Shown piece by piece: positions 19,940 to 57,517 of a DNA stretch of 64,000 nt. The notes under the pieces are model-generated. The model was given only the letters and a program-made list of their open reading frames with translations. It was not told where the DNA came from and ran no database searches. How positions within the stretch are numbered: the first letter of the stretch is position 1; each line of letters begins with the position of its first letter. Position numbers and translations under genes: made by a program. This DNA comes from Actinomycetota bacterium (GTDB lineage Bacteria > Actinomycetota > JAHEXW01), in contig JANXYU010000029.1 of assembly GCA_025355855.1 (NCBI GenBank), forward strand, positions 1 through 64,000. Direction: 5' to 3'.

Positions 19940-19983
19940 CCGCGTCCCAAACGTTCGTGTTCGCTAAATAGTTATTAGACGGC

Positions 19984-20110
19984 GCCCTCTTTCATCCGGA
20001 CTATACCGTCGGCTCCGGCTTATATCGGAATCTACTCCGATCTAAGAATCGGAGCTCGCGGGCTGTCCACCGTTGTGGGTTACCGCCGGTCGGGAATCTC
20101 ACCCTGCCCT
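19984..20110 (-). promoter_or_regulatory. FMN riboswitch (RFN element)
   Basis: On the minus strand the aptamer opens AGGGCAGGGTGAGATTCCC, continues with ACCGGCGGTAACCC and AGCCCGCGAGC, and closes with GGTATAGTCCGGATGAAAGA and GGCG. These are the invariant blocks of the RFN element. The variable arm is the CTCCGATTCTT/AGATCGGAG hairpin. It precedes the ribD-ribE-ribBA-ribH operon and is followed by an intrinsic terminator, so control is by transcription attenuation. Confidence 0.97.
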
Positions 20111-20125
20111 GAAGGCTGTGTGTGA

Positions 20126-47777: not shown

Positions 47778-48113
47778 CTATGACGATGGAACTGTTACCA
47801 TGCTGCTGCCGTTCCACTTGAAAGGCCCATACCATTTCCAATGGCCATCGCGGTAATGGAGATGTATTTTGCAGTTAATCCCCGCGACGCTACCGTCATA
47901 GTTGCCGTAGTTCCAGCCAAGCGCCGGGCTCCACGAGTAGATACATTGACCCAATTGATAGTACGATCCGCACATGTAGAAGTAGGCAAAACCGGTCGAG
48001 AGATTGTTCTGGCTGCCCGCCATTCTTGTATGCATCGTCGCACCGAATGCAGGCGCCACAAACAGCATCATGATCACGGCGCAAAGACATAGTACGAGTA
48101 AGATTCGTTTCAT
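47778..48113 (-). CDS. Small secreted protein, paralogue A
   Basis: 111 aa, starting at the ATG at 48113 with AGAAGGAG 7 bases before it. Signal peptide MKRILLVLCLCAVIMMLFVAPAFGA is followed by a mature chain of about 86 residues rich in Tyr, Trp, Asn and Gly with three Cys (MCGSYYQLGQC, GINC). It ends with KIHLHYRDGHWKWYGPFKWNG. The neighbour downstream of the shared promoter (48157-48492) has the same length, ribosome site and C-terminal motif. No family recognised. Confidence 0.75.
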   Translation of the reverse strand: MKRILLVLCLCAVIMMLFVAPAFGATMHTRMAGSQNNLSTGFAYFYMCGSYYQLGQCIYSWSPALGWNYGNYDGSVAGINCKIHLHYRDGHWKWYGPFKWNGSSMVTVPSS

Positions 48114-48156
48114 AGCATAGCTCCTTCTAGGGATACCCAAAATAGGCTTCTATAGA

Positions 48157-48492
48157 CTATGACCCGGGTACGTTAATAACCTGGCCGTCAAACATGAATG
48201 GGCCGAACCATTTTGTATGGCCATCCTTGTAGTGCAGGTAAATCTTGTACATGAAACCGTGGTTCTGGCTGGCCCAACTTGCTGTACACTTCTTAAGGTA
48301 TTCATCCCAGTGATACGTGCGAGTTCCTTCATTAATCCATTTGTTCGTCTCATTGATGTAGAGTGTTCCCGTCGAACCGCTATTGCTCATATAGGGCATC
48401 CTGGTGGACATAGTTGATGTGGCAAGCGCAGGCGCGGCCAGCAACGCAACAAACATGATGAAAAGTGATACCGTCAGTAACATTCGTCTCAT
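48157..48492 (-). CDS. Small secreted protein, paralogue B
   Basis: 111 aa. Signal peptide MRRMLLTVSLFIMFVALLAAPALA, mature part with TYHWDEYLKKC and the ending KIYLHYKDGHTKWFGPFMFDG. Aligns with paralogue A over the C-terminal 35 residues (LHY[KR]DGHxKW[FY]GPF) and in overall layout, but the N-terminal mature part has diverged and Cys number differs (one against three). First of the two genes; 43 bases separate them. Function unknown. Confidence 0.75.
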   Translation of the reverse strand: MRRMLLTVSLFIMFVALLAAPALATSTMSTRMPYMSNSGSTGTLYINETNKWINEGTRTYHWDEYLKKCTASWASQNHGFMYKIYLHYKDGHTKWFGPFMFDGQVINVPGS

Positions 48493-51916: not shown

Positions 51917-52180
51917 ACGAGAGTTCTTAATTTCGGCTATTCATTTCTTACCGCTATGCAGTTTTCAAGGTGCAACGCGGCCTTGCGGCCGCAGCCGTTA
52001 GTAGTGTTCACAACCGCTAACAACTGAAGTTGCGGTTAAGCAACTCGCTTGAGGGCGCTCCCTCAAAACTGAATAGCGCGCTTGAAGAGTCTATGAGTAA
52101 GGGCTCAGTACTGTTGGTGTGCGTCCCTAACACTTACATGTTCGAGACGGTTGACTAGGAGTTATCTTAAATATCTCCCT
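51917..52180 (-). other. 16S-23S spacer
   Basis: 264 bases with no tRNA gene. AAAACTGAATAGCGCGC (plus strand, 52065-52081) is the exact reverse complement of 53816-53832 ahead of 16S, forming a 17-pair 16S processing stalk. TACCGCTATGC near 51952 forms the 23S stalk with the 3' side of 23S. Otherwise nothing recognised. Confidence 0.85.
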
Positions 52181-53743
<1,563 letters not shown>

Positions 53744-53815
53744 GTTACAGGTCTTCGATTCATAACCTTACTCATCTAAACTTCGACATATCCCATGTTA
53801 ATAAGATACATCGTG

Positions 53816-54082
53816 GCGCGCTATTCAGTTTTCAAGGAACAGTCCCGTTCTTAGGGCATAAAAAAACCGCCCCTCAAACTTCTTGAGGCGGTAACCTCCG
53901 TTTCTCCTGCCGCAGCTTTAATCAGCGACCCGAGCAACGCAGACTACATCGCCTCCGTTCTTGCATTTTCAAAATGATAAAAATCGCACCCGGCAAGTCT
54001 TATTAACAAGCCTGTGACTCCTTAATCTGCCATTTTAGTTACTGCCTTAAGACATACTAACAATCCCGCCGCACTGTGTCAA
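53816..54082 (-). promoter_or_regulatory. rRNA operon promoter and attenuator-like leader
   Basis: -35 TTGACA (54077-54082) and -10 TAGTAT (54054-54059), 17-base spacer. The predicted start is at about 54047. The RNA begins GGCAGTAAC (54038-54046), which can pair with GTTACCGCC (53887-53895) in 8 of 9 positions, closing a structure of about 160 bases. GTTACCGCC also supplies ACCGCCTCAA, the 5' arm of a terminator with TTGAGGGGCGGT and seven T (ending 53860). The pairings exclude each other. A TTCCTTGAAAAC boxA-like sequence and the 16S stalk follow. Riboswitch or attenuator is inference. Confidence 0.6.
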
Positions 54083-54149
54083 CTAGGAAGATTCGATCGC
54101 CAGACTTGCCGACGCTTTTGTCTTAAAACCAGTTCAGTAGGGACATTGC

Positions 54150-55385
54150 CTAACTAAGTATAACACGTCCGACGCGCCGTTTGCCGACGGTTAGCAACAT
54201 ACCGTTGACTAGCGCTATCTCGGCATCCTCGGCATCGACCGCTACGCCATCGATCCGTACAGCTCCTTGGCGGACCAAACGCCGCGCTTCGCCTTTACTA
54301 GACGCGAAACCCGCGCTTTCTATTAGGTCGATGATTCTGATGAGGCCGGCCGTTATCAGAGCTTTATCCGGGGTGATTTCTTCCGCCAGCTTAGCCAAAT
54401 CATCGCTGCCGGCGTGACCGACCTTGTGTTTGACGTTGAACGCTTCCTCGGCGGCCAGCGCGGTCGGCCCGTCATAATAGAGAGCGACTATCGTCCTCGC
54501 TAAGCGTCGTTTGGTTTCACCCGGATGCAAGCCGCCGTCCTCCAGCCCCGCCTCGATAAAGGCAATCTCTTTGTCAGAGATATCTGTGACCAGCCGAAAG
54601 TATCTAACTATCAGTTCGTCCGGCAGCGACATAGATTTGCCAAACATATCCTCCGGTGCATCCGTCACCCCGATGTAGTTGCCCAGGCTCTTGCTCATCT
54701 TGTTTAGGCCATCGGTACCTTCCAATAGCGGCATCGTCATAACTACCTGTGCTTCCTGGCCATACTCGCGTTGCATGTCGCGTCCAACGAGAAGATTGAA
54801 CTTTTGATCTGTGCCGCCCAACTCGATATCCGCTTTGACCGCCACCGAATCATACCCTTGGAGCAGCGGGTACATGAACTCTCGCAGGCTGATGGGTTGA
54901 TTGTTTTGATAACGTTGGCAGAAGTCATCGCGTTCCAGCATCCTGGCGACGGTATACGCGCCGGTCAGACGTAACGTGTCAGCCATCGTCATTTTCCCCA
55001 GCCAAAAACTGTTGAATACCACCTCGGTTTGCGCCGGGTTCAAGATCCGCATCAGTTGGTCTACATACGTCGCCGCGTTGTCCTTGACCTCTGATTCCGT
55101 AAGCTGAGGCCGCATCGCCGTACGGCCTGTCGGATCGCCGATCATACCGGTGAAATCGCCTACGATCAAAACAGCCGTATGGCCGAGATCCTGAAACTGA
55201 CGTAACTTGCGCAGAACAACGGTGTGACCTAAATGGATGTCGGGGGCGCTAGGGTCAAGGCCTAGTTTGACGCGTAAAGGCCGGCGGTCTTTGGCGGCGG
55301 CCTTCAATTTGGCCTCTAAGCCGTCCGCGGGGATTATTTCGTCGGCGCCTCGATATATGATGGCAAGTTGTTTAGTGATATCCAC
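54150..55385 (-). CDS. tyrS: Tyrosyl-tRNA synthetase
   Basis: Class I synthetase (411 aa from the GTG at 55385). LGLDPSAPDIHLGHTVVL contains the HIGH-type motif, GGTDQKFNLL the tyrosine pocket, LNKMSKSLGNYI the KMSKS loop, and the C-terminus is an S4-type RNA-binding domain (GEARRLVRQGAVRIDG). TAAAAT at 55394-55399 is a possible -10 placed so that the mRNA would start at the GTG (leaderless). The ATG at 55418 (MIRVFVLKSS), with AGGA upstream, is the alternative. Divergent from the PBP gene. No T-box is visible before it. Confidence 0.93.
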   Translation of the reverse strand: MDITKQLAIIYRGADEIIPADGLEAKLKAAAKDRRPLRVKLGLDPSAPDIHLGHTVVLRKLRQFQDLGHTAVLIVGDFTGMIGDPTGRTAMRPQLTESEVKDNAATYVDQLMRILNPAQTEVVFNSFWLGKMTMADTLRLTGAYTVARMLERDDFCQRYQNNQPISLREFMYPLLQGYDSVAVKADIELGGTDQKFNLLVGRDMQREYGQEAQVVMTMPLLEGTDGLNKMSKSLGNYIGVTDAPEDMFGKSMSLPDELIVRYFRLVTDISDKEIAFIEAGLEDGGLHPGETKRRLARTIVALYYDGPTALAAEEAFNVKHKVGHAGSDDLAKLAEEITPDKALITAGLIRIIDLIESAGFASSKGEARRLVRQGAVRIDGVAVDAEDAEIALVNGMLLTVGKRRVGRVILS

Positions 55386-55444
55386 GATGCTTGATTTTAA
55401 CACGAACACGCGAATCATAACTATCCTGATATACTTATGTAGAT

Positions 55445-57517
55445 ATGGCAAAACGCAAACTGACGCATAAATCAGCCAAAGTAAAACGAGTGCTCAAGCG
55501 GGTCGGCATCGGCATCCTTGTCTTTTCTGTCATTGTGGGAGGAGGTTTGGCCGGCATCGCGACGGGATATATGGGCGGGTTGCCCAAACTGAGCGCCTAT
55601 AAAGATCTCGGACGCGACCAGACTTCCAAAATGTACGCAGCCGACGGTACCCTTTTGGCCACCTTGCATGCCGAACAGGATCGCGAGGTCATACCGAGCA
55701 CGGATATCCCAAAATCTTTGCAACAGGCAATTGTTGCCATTGAGGACTCGCGTTTCTATCAGCACAATGGGGTCGACCTGCGCGGTATCTTGCGAGCGAT
55801 CTACGTGAACTGGCGTTATGGTTCCGGTGAAGGCGGTTCTACCCTGACTCAGCAGTACGTCCGTAACAGCTTTATCAAGCCCGAACCGACGATATCTCGC
55901 AAAATAAAGGAAGCGGCTCTCGCCTACCAGCTTGAGCAGCGTTATGCAAAAGACAAAATCCTGGAAATGTACTTGAACACCGTTTACTTTGGTGAGGGCT
56001 GCTATGGAATCGAAGCGGCCGCCCAAACATACTTCGGTAAACACGCCAAAGAACTTACTTTGCCGGAATCGGCTTTGATCGCCGGACTGCCGGGGGCGCC
56101 TAACCTGTTCGATCCTTATGTCAACGCTAAGCTCTGCAAAACGCGGCGTGACCGGGTCTTAACCAAAATGGTCGAACAACACTTTGTGAGTGCCAAAGAC
56201 GCGGCTGCTGCCAAGCAGACACCTATAACGGTAAAGCCGGCCAAACTGCCGACCGAAGCCGCACCTTCAATAGCCCCCTATTTTGTCGAGCACGTTAAGC
56301 TGGCATTGATTGAAAAATATGGGGCCAATATGGTCTACCGCGGCGGCTTGCGTATCTACACGACTCTGGACATGAATATGCAGAAATCGGCTGAGGCGTC
56401 TGTTTTTGGCACGCTCAATGAACCAGGGGACCCCGAGGCGGCCCTGGTTGCGATCGACCCCAAGACAGGGTCCATCAAAGCTCTTGTGGGCGGCCGTGAC
56501 TTTAACACAAACAAATACAACCTGGCGACGCAGGCGCTGCGCAGTCCTGGCTCCGCATTCAAAGTAATGGGCCTAGCCGCGGCTTTGGAAAGCAACATCA
56601 GCCCCAGCCGGACGTATGACGCGTCGGCCCCCAAAACAATTAAGAACGGCGACGAGACTTGGCGGGTTGAGAACTACGAGGGCGGGAGTTTTAGCGGCCA
56701 GATGAGTGTGGCCGAAGCGACCGTCTGGTCGGTTAACGCGGTTTACGCGCAGCTGGCCATGGACGTAAAGGCTAGTAAAATCGCCGAAACCGCCCAGAAG
56801 CTGGGTATCGTGACTCCGGTCCCCAGCTACCCTTCCATTATCTTGGGGGCTTTGCCTGATGGAGCAACGGTTTTGGAAATGGCCAGCGCTTACGCGACGC
56901 TGGCCGACGACGGCGTTTATAACCGCCCCTCAGGCATAGCGAAGTTGACGGATTCGGAAGGCACGGTCATCGAGATGGCCAAGATTCAAGGAAAACAAGC
57001 TGTCAGTCAGAACACAGCCCGGACGGTCAGCAAAATACTCGAACAAGTTATCAGTCGTGGGACCGGGTTTAGGGCCAATATCGGCCGGCCGGCCGCCGGC
57101 AAGACCGGTACCGCAGAATACAAGCAAGACGCGTGGTTCTGCGGCTATACCCCTGATCTAGCCTGCGCCGTTTGGATGGGTTATCCGGAAGGTTCGGTTG
57201 ATATGGGTTATGTTCACGGCTATCCGCCTTACGGCGGCAGCCTGCCGGCTCTCATGTGGCGACAATTCATGAGCGCGGCGCTCACCGACGTAGCGGTTTC
57301 TGATTTTCCGGACGCTGGGAACGTGACTTACATCAACGAGGGAGTAAAAGTTAAAGTCTGCGCTGTCAGCGGACTGCTGGCTACGCCGTACTGCCCAGAC
57401 ACGGTTGATAAATATTTCAGTCCTGGTGACGTACCCAAAGACTACTGTAAAATCCACACTGGTCCGCCCGCTCCGCCTCCCCCGCCCAGCAGCGGCTCAA
57501 CAACCTCTCTGCATTAA
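55445..57517 (+). CDS. Class A penicillin-binding protein (transglycosylase/transpeptidase)
   Basis: 690 aa. TM anchor about 20-42 (GIGILVFSVIVGGGLAGIA); GT51 domain with AIEDSRFYQHNGVDLRGI, GGSTLTQQYVRN, KIKEAALAYQLEQRYAKDKILEMYLN; transpeptidase with SPGSAFK (SXXK serine), SVN (SXN) and AGKTGTAE (KTG). The C-terminus ends in a Pro-rich tail. Builds and cross-links peptidoglycan outside the membrane. Plus-strand orphan facing tyrS, with alr and a FemAB protein nearby. Confidence 0.95.
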   Translation: MAKRKLTHKSAKVKRVLKRVGIGILVFSVIVGGGLAGIATGYMGGLPKLSAYKDLGRDQTSKMYAADGTLLATLHAEQDREVIPSTDIPKSLQQAIVAIEDSRFYQHNGVDLRGILRAIYVNWRYGSGEGGSTLTQQYVRNSFIKPEPTISRKIKEAALAYQLEQRYAKDKILEMYLNTVYFGEGCYGIEAAAQTYFGKHAKELTLPESALIAGLPGAPNLFDPYVNAKLCKTRRDRVLTKMVEQHFVSAKDAAAAKQTPITVKPAKLPTEAAPSIAPYFVEHVKLALIEKYGANMVYRGGLRIYTTLDMNMQKSAEASVFGTLNEPGDPEAALVAIDPKTGSIKALVGGRDFNTNKYNLATQALRSPGSAFKVMGLAAALESNISPSRTYDASAPKTIKNGDETWRVENYEGGSFSGQMSVAEATVWSVNAVYAQLAMDVKASKIAETAQKLGIVTPVPSYPSIILGALPDGATVLEMASAYATLADDGVYNRPSGIAKLTDSEGTVIEMAKIQGKQAVSQNTARTVSKILEQVISRGTGFRANIGRPAAGKTGTAEYKQDAWFCGYTPDLACAVWMGYPEGSVDMGYVHGYPPYGGSLPALMWRQFMSAALTDVAVSDFPDAGNVTYINEGVKVKVCAVSGLLATPYCPDTVDKYFSPGDVPKDYCKIHTGPPAPPPPPSSGSTTSLH

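What the first reader, a model, noticed from the sequence alone, without database searches (positions are those of the whole stretch)
53860..54082. Riboswitch- or attenuator-like leader ahead of the rRNA operon
Seen: a good promoter (TTGACA-17-TAGTAT), an RNA predicted to begin at GGCAGTAAC, and 150 bases later GTTACCGCC, complementary in 8 of 9 positions. The same GTTACCGCC overlaps the 5' arm of an intrinsic terminator with a T7 run, placed upstream of the boxA-like sequence and 16S processing stalk. Mutually exclusive pairing plus terminator is the textbook layout of a riboswitch or attenuator. Known aptamers (FMN, TPP, SAM, c-di-GMP, c-di-AMP, lysine, glycine, T-box) did not fit by eye. 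A metabolite- or tRNA-controlled rRNA operon would be new. Whether polymerase normally reads through, or this is a separate stable RNA of about 190 bases, is inference.
Basis: partly seen in the sequence, partly recalled or inferred. Interest (0 to 1): 0.7.

Follow-up and report, generated by a model that had tools for sequence, protein, structure and literature searches.

The report
Conditional terminator guarding rRNA operon
The RNA leader in front of this bacterium's ribosomal RNA genes carries an on/off switch, a stop signal competing with a folded alternative, and the same switch turns up in front of the rRNA genes of several families of the same phylum, which would be an unusual way to control how many ribosomes a cell makes.

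Summary
The leader (minus strand, 54047-53860) is a transcription attenuator of the rRNA operon. Promoter, terminator with seven T and downstream boxA are real. Support: transcripts cut before the terminator's 3' arm fold into the antiterminator; own pairs beat pairs swapped between families, -19.6 vs -13.4 kcal/mol, 0 of 20000 permutations; 134 of 138 shared-arm letters pair in one fold and 137 of 138 in the other. A covariance model hit 28 of 396 Actinomycetota genomes: all 23 hits at E<=1e-4 are single-copy and lie before a 16S gene, 11 of them not in the training set; the 5 weaker hits do not. No Rfam family matches. The signal sensed is not shown. The antiterminator's 5' strand is Shine-Dalgarno-like and, in this class, overlaps the end of a possible leader ORF, so ribosome-sensing feedback is my preferred but unproven reading.

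The parts
54054..54082 (-). promoter TTGACA-17-TAGTAT of the rrn operon; RNA start predicted near 54047
   Evidence: both hexamers kept in same-genus G002; G001 has TTTACA...TATGCT in the same place (read)
54018..54023 (-). Shine-Dalgarno-like AAGGAG, 8 nt before TTG at 54009; inside a 33-nt block identical in G000 and G002
53944..54009 (-). possible leader ORF, TTG start, 21 codons LLIRLAGCDFYHFENARTEAM, stop TAG at 53946-53944 inside the antiterminator 5' strand (inferred, not shown to be translated)
   Evidence: start at -53 with SD in G000, G002 and G001; shuffled leaders give such an ORF in 8-13 of 100; not found in most f16 leaders
53939..53956 (-). conserved 18-mer GGAGGCGATGTAGTCTGC, 5' strand of the antiterminator, Shine-Dalgarno-like
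   Evidence: identical but for one base in G000, G002, G001; best anti-SD match of its leader
53885..53955 (-). antiterminator hairpin: GAGGCG 53955-53950 pairs with CGCCTC 53890-53885, long imperfect hairpin between
53866..53892 (-). intrinsic terminator hairpin ACCGCCTC-(11)-GGGGCGGT
53860..53866 (-). U7 tract of the terminator
53821..53839 (-). boxA-like TTCCTTGAAAACTGAATAG, downstream of the terminator
   Evidence: boxA label by resemblance to known rrn leaders (recalled; CL2/BoxA in PMC10218544, passages seen)
52183..53740 (-). 16S rRNA
   Evidence: Rfam RF00177
48914..51918 (-). 23S rRNA
   Evidence: Rfam RF02541
48728..48844 (-). 5S rRNA
   Evidence: Rfam RF00001

Best explanation
The leader is a transcription attenuator. 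As RNA polymerase leaves the promoter, the leader folds first into a long antiterminator hairpin whose base is GAGGCG:CGCCTC. This hides the terminator's 5' arm, so polymerase reads on through boxA into 16S. If the hairpin's 5' strand is occupied, the arm is freed, the terminator forms and transcription stops after about 190 nt. The two exclusive folds are supported by comparison; that they switch transcription is inferred. Which occupant does it is inferred only: the 5' strand is Shine-Dalgarno-like and, in this class, lies at the end of a possible short ORF, so I think a ribosome or 30S subunit is the likeliest occupant (about 0.3 by itself). Plentiful ribosomes would then shut off rRNA synthesis and scarce ones would let it run. 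The confidence given is for the attenuator, not for the sensor.
For: Two exclusive partners: in 23 aligned leaders the six terminator-arm positions pair with the antiterminator strand in 134 of 138 cells and with the terminator 3' arm in 137 of 138; G-C to A-U exchange at one antiterminator pair in 8 leaders. Alignment-free swap test: own -19.6, swapped -13.4 kcal/mol, 0 of 20000 permutations, also 0 of 20000 with one leader per family; the control window at -187..-140 shows nothing. Folding up to the terminator arm gives an antiterminator in all 17 non-f3 leaders folded. In G000 the states are balanced, -54.6 and -55.5 kcal/mol. Genomic fit: 23 of 23 model hits at E<=1e-4 lie before 16S, one per genome, 11 not used for training; a further hit in G239 also. 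No second promoter is found between terminator and boxA in the window. Sensor: the element is the best anti-SD match of the leader in 18 of 25 leaders (14 of 17 without f3); leader ORF with SD in 3 of 3 genomes of this class.
Against: No RNA data. The core helix is conserved, so classical covariation inside it is thin: only one column pair with two-sided change in the 23-row alignment, no more pair types than shuffles, and that alignment was fitted to the structure. The anti-SD match is confounded, since the strand must be G-rich to pair with the C-rich arm. Leader ORFs with SD exist in 13 of 34 leaders, about 5 expected from shuffles, and not in most f16 leaders, so translation of an ORF cannot be the common sensor. 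No usable start codon follows the GGAGG in most leaders (read). In G147 the folded hairpin uses another 5' strand. In G001 the pairing register that I first forced is 8.6 kcal/mol worse than the MFE; its best fold uses the GAGGCG/CGCCTT register. The folding test with shuffles is modest: 27 of 35 leaders against 16.1 expected.
Confidence: 0.75

Rival explanations
1. The same attenuator, but the antiterminator strand is bound by a protein (a ribosomal protein, NusA or another factor) or a small ligand, as in r-protein leaders and riboswitches.
For: The 5' flank GAACnGGAGG is kept although it is often outside the helix. 23S rRNA holds AACGGAGGCG (23S position about 2378), a possible mimic. Leaders of family f22 use a different conserved strand, GATCTCAAGAGCTAGCG, which is not SD-like.
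Against: No Rfam r-protein leader or riboswitch matches. The region between the arms varies strongly in length and sequence, with no conserved aptamer-like core beyond the arms. The 23S resemblance is not kept in f16 or f32 leaders.
Confidence: 0.35
2. No trans-acting sensor: the outcome depends on polymerase speed and pausing (NTP or ppGpp level, NusA, NusG), the two folds being nearly equal in energy.
For: Antiterminator and terminator states of G000 differ by about 1 kcal/mol. rRNA synthesis is known to follow NTP and ppGpp levels (recalled).
Against: It does not explain the conserved purine-rich strand outside the helix. In G002 the antiterminator state is 6.4 kcal/mol better.
Confidence: 0.2
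3. A plain terminator: it ends an upstream transcript or yields a stable RNA of about 190 nt, and rRNA is made by leaky read-through or from another promoter.
For: Families f16, f6, f32 and f33 have a TTGACA promoter between terminator and boxA (by eye), so there the terminator could insulate it.
Against: No such promoter in the window. A plain terminator needs no second partner for its 5' arm, yet that pairing is maintained. The upstream gene differs between G000 (tyrS) and G001 while the element stays.
Confidence: 0.1

Closest known systems
Terminator/antiterminator attenuators (trp, rplJL, vmlR leaders and the like)
   Same: Exclusive antiterminator and intrinsic terminator sharing one arm in a leader RNA
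   Different: The regulated unit is the rRNA operon, not an mRNA; no family in Rfam; sensor unknown
rRNA leader boxA / Nus-factor antitermination (E. coli, mycobacterial CL2)
   Same: A boxA-like element lies between leader and 16S
   Different: boxA lies downstream of this intrinsic terminator, so an element read after the terminator cannot protect against it; the switch here is an RNA refolding
Ribosomal protein leaders (e.g. L10(L12)4 leader of B. subtilis rplJL)
   Same: Feedback logic on ribosome parts by attenuation
   Different: Acts on r-protein mRNA; no r-protein leader family matches here
Leader-peptide attenuators
   Same: In this class a short ORF with SD ends inside the antiterminator strand
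   Different: No run of regulatory codons; ORF absent from most f16 leaders

Membership tests
Intrinsic transcription attenuator | Intrinsic terminator between promoter and first gene of the operon | tested here: met
Intrinsic transcription attenuator | Antiterminator exclusive with the terminator, kept in relatives | tested here: met
   strong for f1, f2, f6, f16, f32, f33; weaker for f3, where the helix overlaps the terminator arm less
Intrinsic transcription attenuator | Read-through changes with a signal | not testable with these tools
   needs transcription assays
Known riboswitch or other Rfam family | Match to a covariance model | tested here: not met
   none up to E=5 on 53740-54160; none for the leader elements of 20 related loci up to E=0.5, the one weak ALIL hit lying outside the element
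T-box | Stem I specifier loop and UGGN bulge (recalled); Rfam T-box match | tested here: not met
   no match to any Rfam family, the T-box among them
6S RNA | Rfam 6S match; stand-alone RNA | tested here: not met
Amino-acid leader-peptide attenuator | Short ORF with SD before the switch | tested here: inconclusive
   present in 3 of 3 genomes of this class, 13 of 34 leaders overall
Amino-acid leader-peptide attenuator | Run of codons for one amino acid | tested here: not met
   peptides show no such run in this class in the frame with SD
boxA/NusB antitermination of rrn | boxA upstream of the terminator it overrides | tested here: not met
   boxA-like site at 53839-53821 lies after the terminator

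The most novel reading that the evidence does not exclude
A ribosome-counting switch. The rRNA leader offers a Shine-Dalgarno-like strand, in some lineages at the end of a tiny ORF; ribosomes or 30S subunits that occupy it free the terminator and stop rRNA synthesis, so the amount of ribosomes directly sets rRNA transcription through a cis RNA switch across several classes of Actinomycetota.
Probability: 0.3. Interest if true: 0.92.

Novelty: new variant of a known kind. Interest (0 to 1): 0.74.

Why it matters
As far as I recall, bacterial rRNA synthesis is thought to be set mainly at initiation (ppGpp, NTPs, activators) and protected later by Nus factors. A conserved intrinsic-terminator switch inside the rRNA leader adds a control point that is not in Rfam and that my searches of open-access papers did not find described. 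If ribosomes themselves throw the switch, the old question of direct ribosome feedback on rRNA synthesis could be tested on a roughly 190-nt RNA.

Tried and rejected
Known RNA families were tested. The 18-mer was searched as a pattern: 37 of 396 genomes have it with up to one mismatch; of the 30 loci fetched, only those of G000, G001 and G002 hold a 16S start; matches without a fetched locus were not examined. They are probably coding sequence with GAG GCG-type codons (inference).

A leader peptide as the common sensor was examined and kept only as possible for this class. Mimicry of 16S was not found; one 10-base match to 23S is noted. MAFFT alignment A4 misplaced the f16 element by three bases and was not used; A5 misplaces G006 by one base. 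My first triple table used wrong columns and is replaced. The forced antiterminator register for G001 was not its best one. L153 (E 0.78) was left out of alignment A7.

Family f3 (8 leaders) has a terminator before boxA in 7 of 8, but its arms overlap less with the upstream helix; I count it as doubtful. The duplex test was no better than shuffles for f22, f42 (two of three), f46, f38 and the f25 hit, and weak for G125, G033 and several f3 leaders. In the folding test 27 of 35 leaders had at least 60% of the terminator arm paired upstream, against 16.1 expected from shuffles, so that test alone is modest; it left out the f25 leaders.

Literature: searches (open PubMed Central library only). 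Passages seen: PMC2965389, PMC10218544, PMC13236596; otherwise listings and abstract starts only. None described an rRNA operon attenuator; subscription papers are not covered.

Full report
What is there. The feature lies on the minus strand, between tyrS (55451-54150) and the 16S gene (53740-52183) of an rrn operon whose leader is single-copy in the held genome. One promoter-like site (54082-54054) is found in 53000-55000. Some 155 nt downstream of the predicted start an intrinsic terminator begins (53892-53866), ending in seven T (53866-53860), so a terminated RNA would be about 190 nt. Twenty nucleotides further a boxA-like sequence begins, and the 16S gene starts at 53740. No promoter is found after the terminator, so in this genome the rRNA transcript must pass through it.

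The phylum. One phylum member (G023) has a 16S 96.6% identical to that of a Streptomyces plasmid record, so I take the phylum to be Actinomycetota. The class of the window holds only three genomes: G000 (own), G002 (same genus) and G001 (another family).

First comparison. G000 and G002 share two long identical blocks in the leader: 33 nt around AAGGAGTCACAGGCTTG, and 39 nt around GAACGGAGGCGATGTAGTCTGC. G001 is largely diverged but keeps GGAGGCGATGCAGTCTGC and a terminator in the same order before boxA.

Wider comparison. A 16S 5'-end query matched 120 of 149 relatives. I looked at 110 loci in all: 3 of this class, 27 and 80 stretches. Eight of the 110 had no 16S motif and were dropped. Of 83 leaders with a boxA-like site and at least 500 nt upstream, 29 have a sense-strand terminator in the 150 nt before boxA. 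The other strand gives 0 of 83, shuffles 3 of 415. Families f8, f18, f10, f23, f5, f7, f11, f20 and the Streptomyces-like f19 show none.

The second fold. In f1, f2, f6, f16, f32 and f33 a GGAGG-type element lies about 45-65 nt before the terminator and pairs with its 5' arm (G147 of f6 less clearly). Transcripts cut before the 3' arm fold into a long hairpin that uses this arm in all 17 leaders of f1, f2, f6, f16, f21, f24, f32 and f33 folded. In one of them, G147, the 5' strand is a later segment.

Is the pairing maintained? Swap test on 25 leaders of nine families: each element with its own arm averages -19.6 kcal/mol, with arms of other families -13.4, 0 of 20000 permutations. With one leader per family it is again 0 of 20000. 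The window at -187..-140 shows no difference; the window at -140..-93 shows a small one (193 of 20000) that fades without the GC-rich f3 (2961 of 20000). In 23 leaders aligned by the model, the six shared positions pair in 134 of 138 cells with the antiterminator strand and in 137 of 138 with the terminator 3' arm. At two positions all three bases change together: G-C-G against A-T-A, and T-A-T against C-G-C (antiterminator strand, shared arm, terminator 3' arm). The standard counts are mixed: cells changed on both sides 8 (1 of 500 shuffles reach it), covariation score 0.362 (0 of 500; slid versions at most 0.153), but pairs with two-sided change 1 and pair types 5, no better than shuffles. 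In the 12-row MAFFT alignment, not fitted to a structure, two antiterminator pairs and three terminator pairs have two-sided change.

Independent finding. A covariance model from 12 leaders hit 28 of 396 phylum genomes at E<=0.1. All 23 at E<=1e-4 are single hits before a 16S gene; 12 are the training set and 11 are not (G147 and ten new genomes, 16S 250-322 nt downstream in those ten). The five hits above E=0.005 have no 16S start in their locus. In the class of G016, 13 of 31 genomes match, among them G239 before its 16S. No genome has a second copy at these thresholds, so the element is tied to rrn. The families with strong hits fall into at least three classes: f1/f2; f16/f32; and f6/f33, which are in neither of these lists.

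Energy. For G000 the two states are within 1 kcal/mol (-54.6 and -55.5); for G002 the antiterminator is favoured (-62.3 against -55.9). In both, chains of 164-172 nt show the antiterminator formed before the terminator can form. So read-through looks like the default (inference).

What could flip it. The antiterminator 5' strand is the best match to the 16S 3' tail in 18 of 25 leaders, 14 of 17 without f3. Because that strand must pair with a C-rich arm, this is suggestive only. In f1 and f2 a TTG with a good SD lies 53 nt before the element in all three genomes, and the ORF ends inside the element. Two f6 leaders have a comparable short ORF, but most f16 leaders have none; overall 13 of 34 against about 5 expected (sum of the shuffle rates). 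I therefore prefer ribosome or 30S occupancy as the signal, at about 0.3, with protein or ligand binding and a kinetic sensor as rivals.

Novelty. No Rfam family covers it, and nine literature searches in open-access full text found no rRNA attenuator of this kind. Attenuation itself is well known; its use on an rRNA operon, conserved across families, is what is new here. I call it a new variant of a known kind.

Noticed in passing
window 19980-20120 (-): FMN riboswitch (RF00050, 99.7 bits).
   Followed up: no
window 47778-48492 (-): Two tandem, similar small secreted-looking proteins (120 and 111 aa) directly downstream of the 5S gene, no Pfam match.
   Followed up: partly
window 54150-55451 (-): tyrS directly upstream of rrn, the same neighbourhood as mycobacterial rrnB (PMC10218544, passages) and as several tyrS loci of other phyla.
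   Followed up: partly
window 51919-52182 (-): 16S-23S spacer without any tRNA gene.
   Followed up: no
L131, L142, L153 (family f22): rrn leaders share GATCTCAAGAGCTAGCG before a CCGCTGG terminator and can form another antiterminator hairpin; perhaps a second variant of the switch.
   Followed up: partly
L151, L154, L160, L161, L165, L168, L188, L220 (family f3): rrn leaders, most of them with a GGCACCUGA...CCAGGU-type hairpin and a terminator right before boxA; overlap of the two folds is weaker.
   Followed up: partly
23S rRNA of the window, 23S position about 2378: AGTAACGGAGGCG in 23S resembles the leader's GAACGGAGGCG; possibly chance.
   Followed up: no
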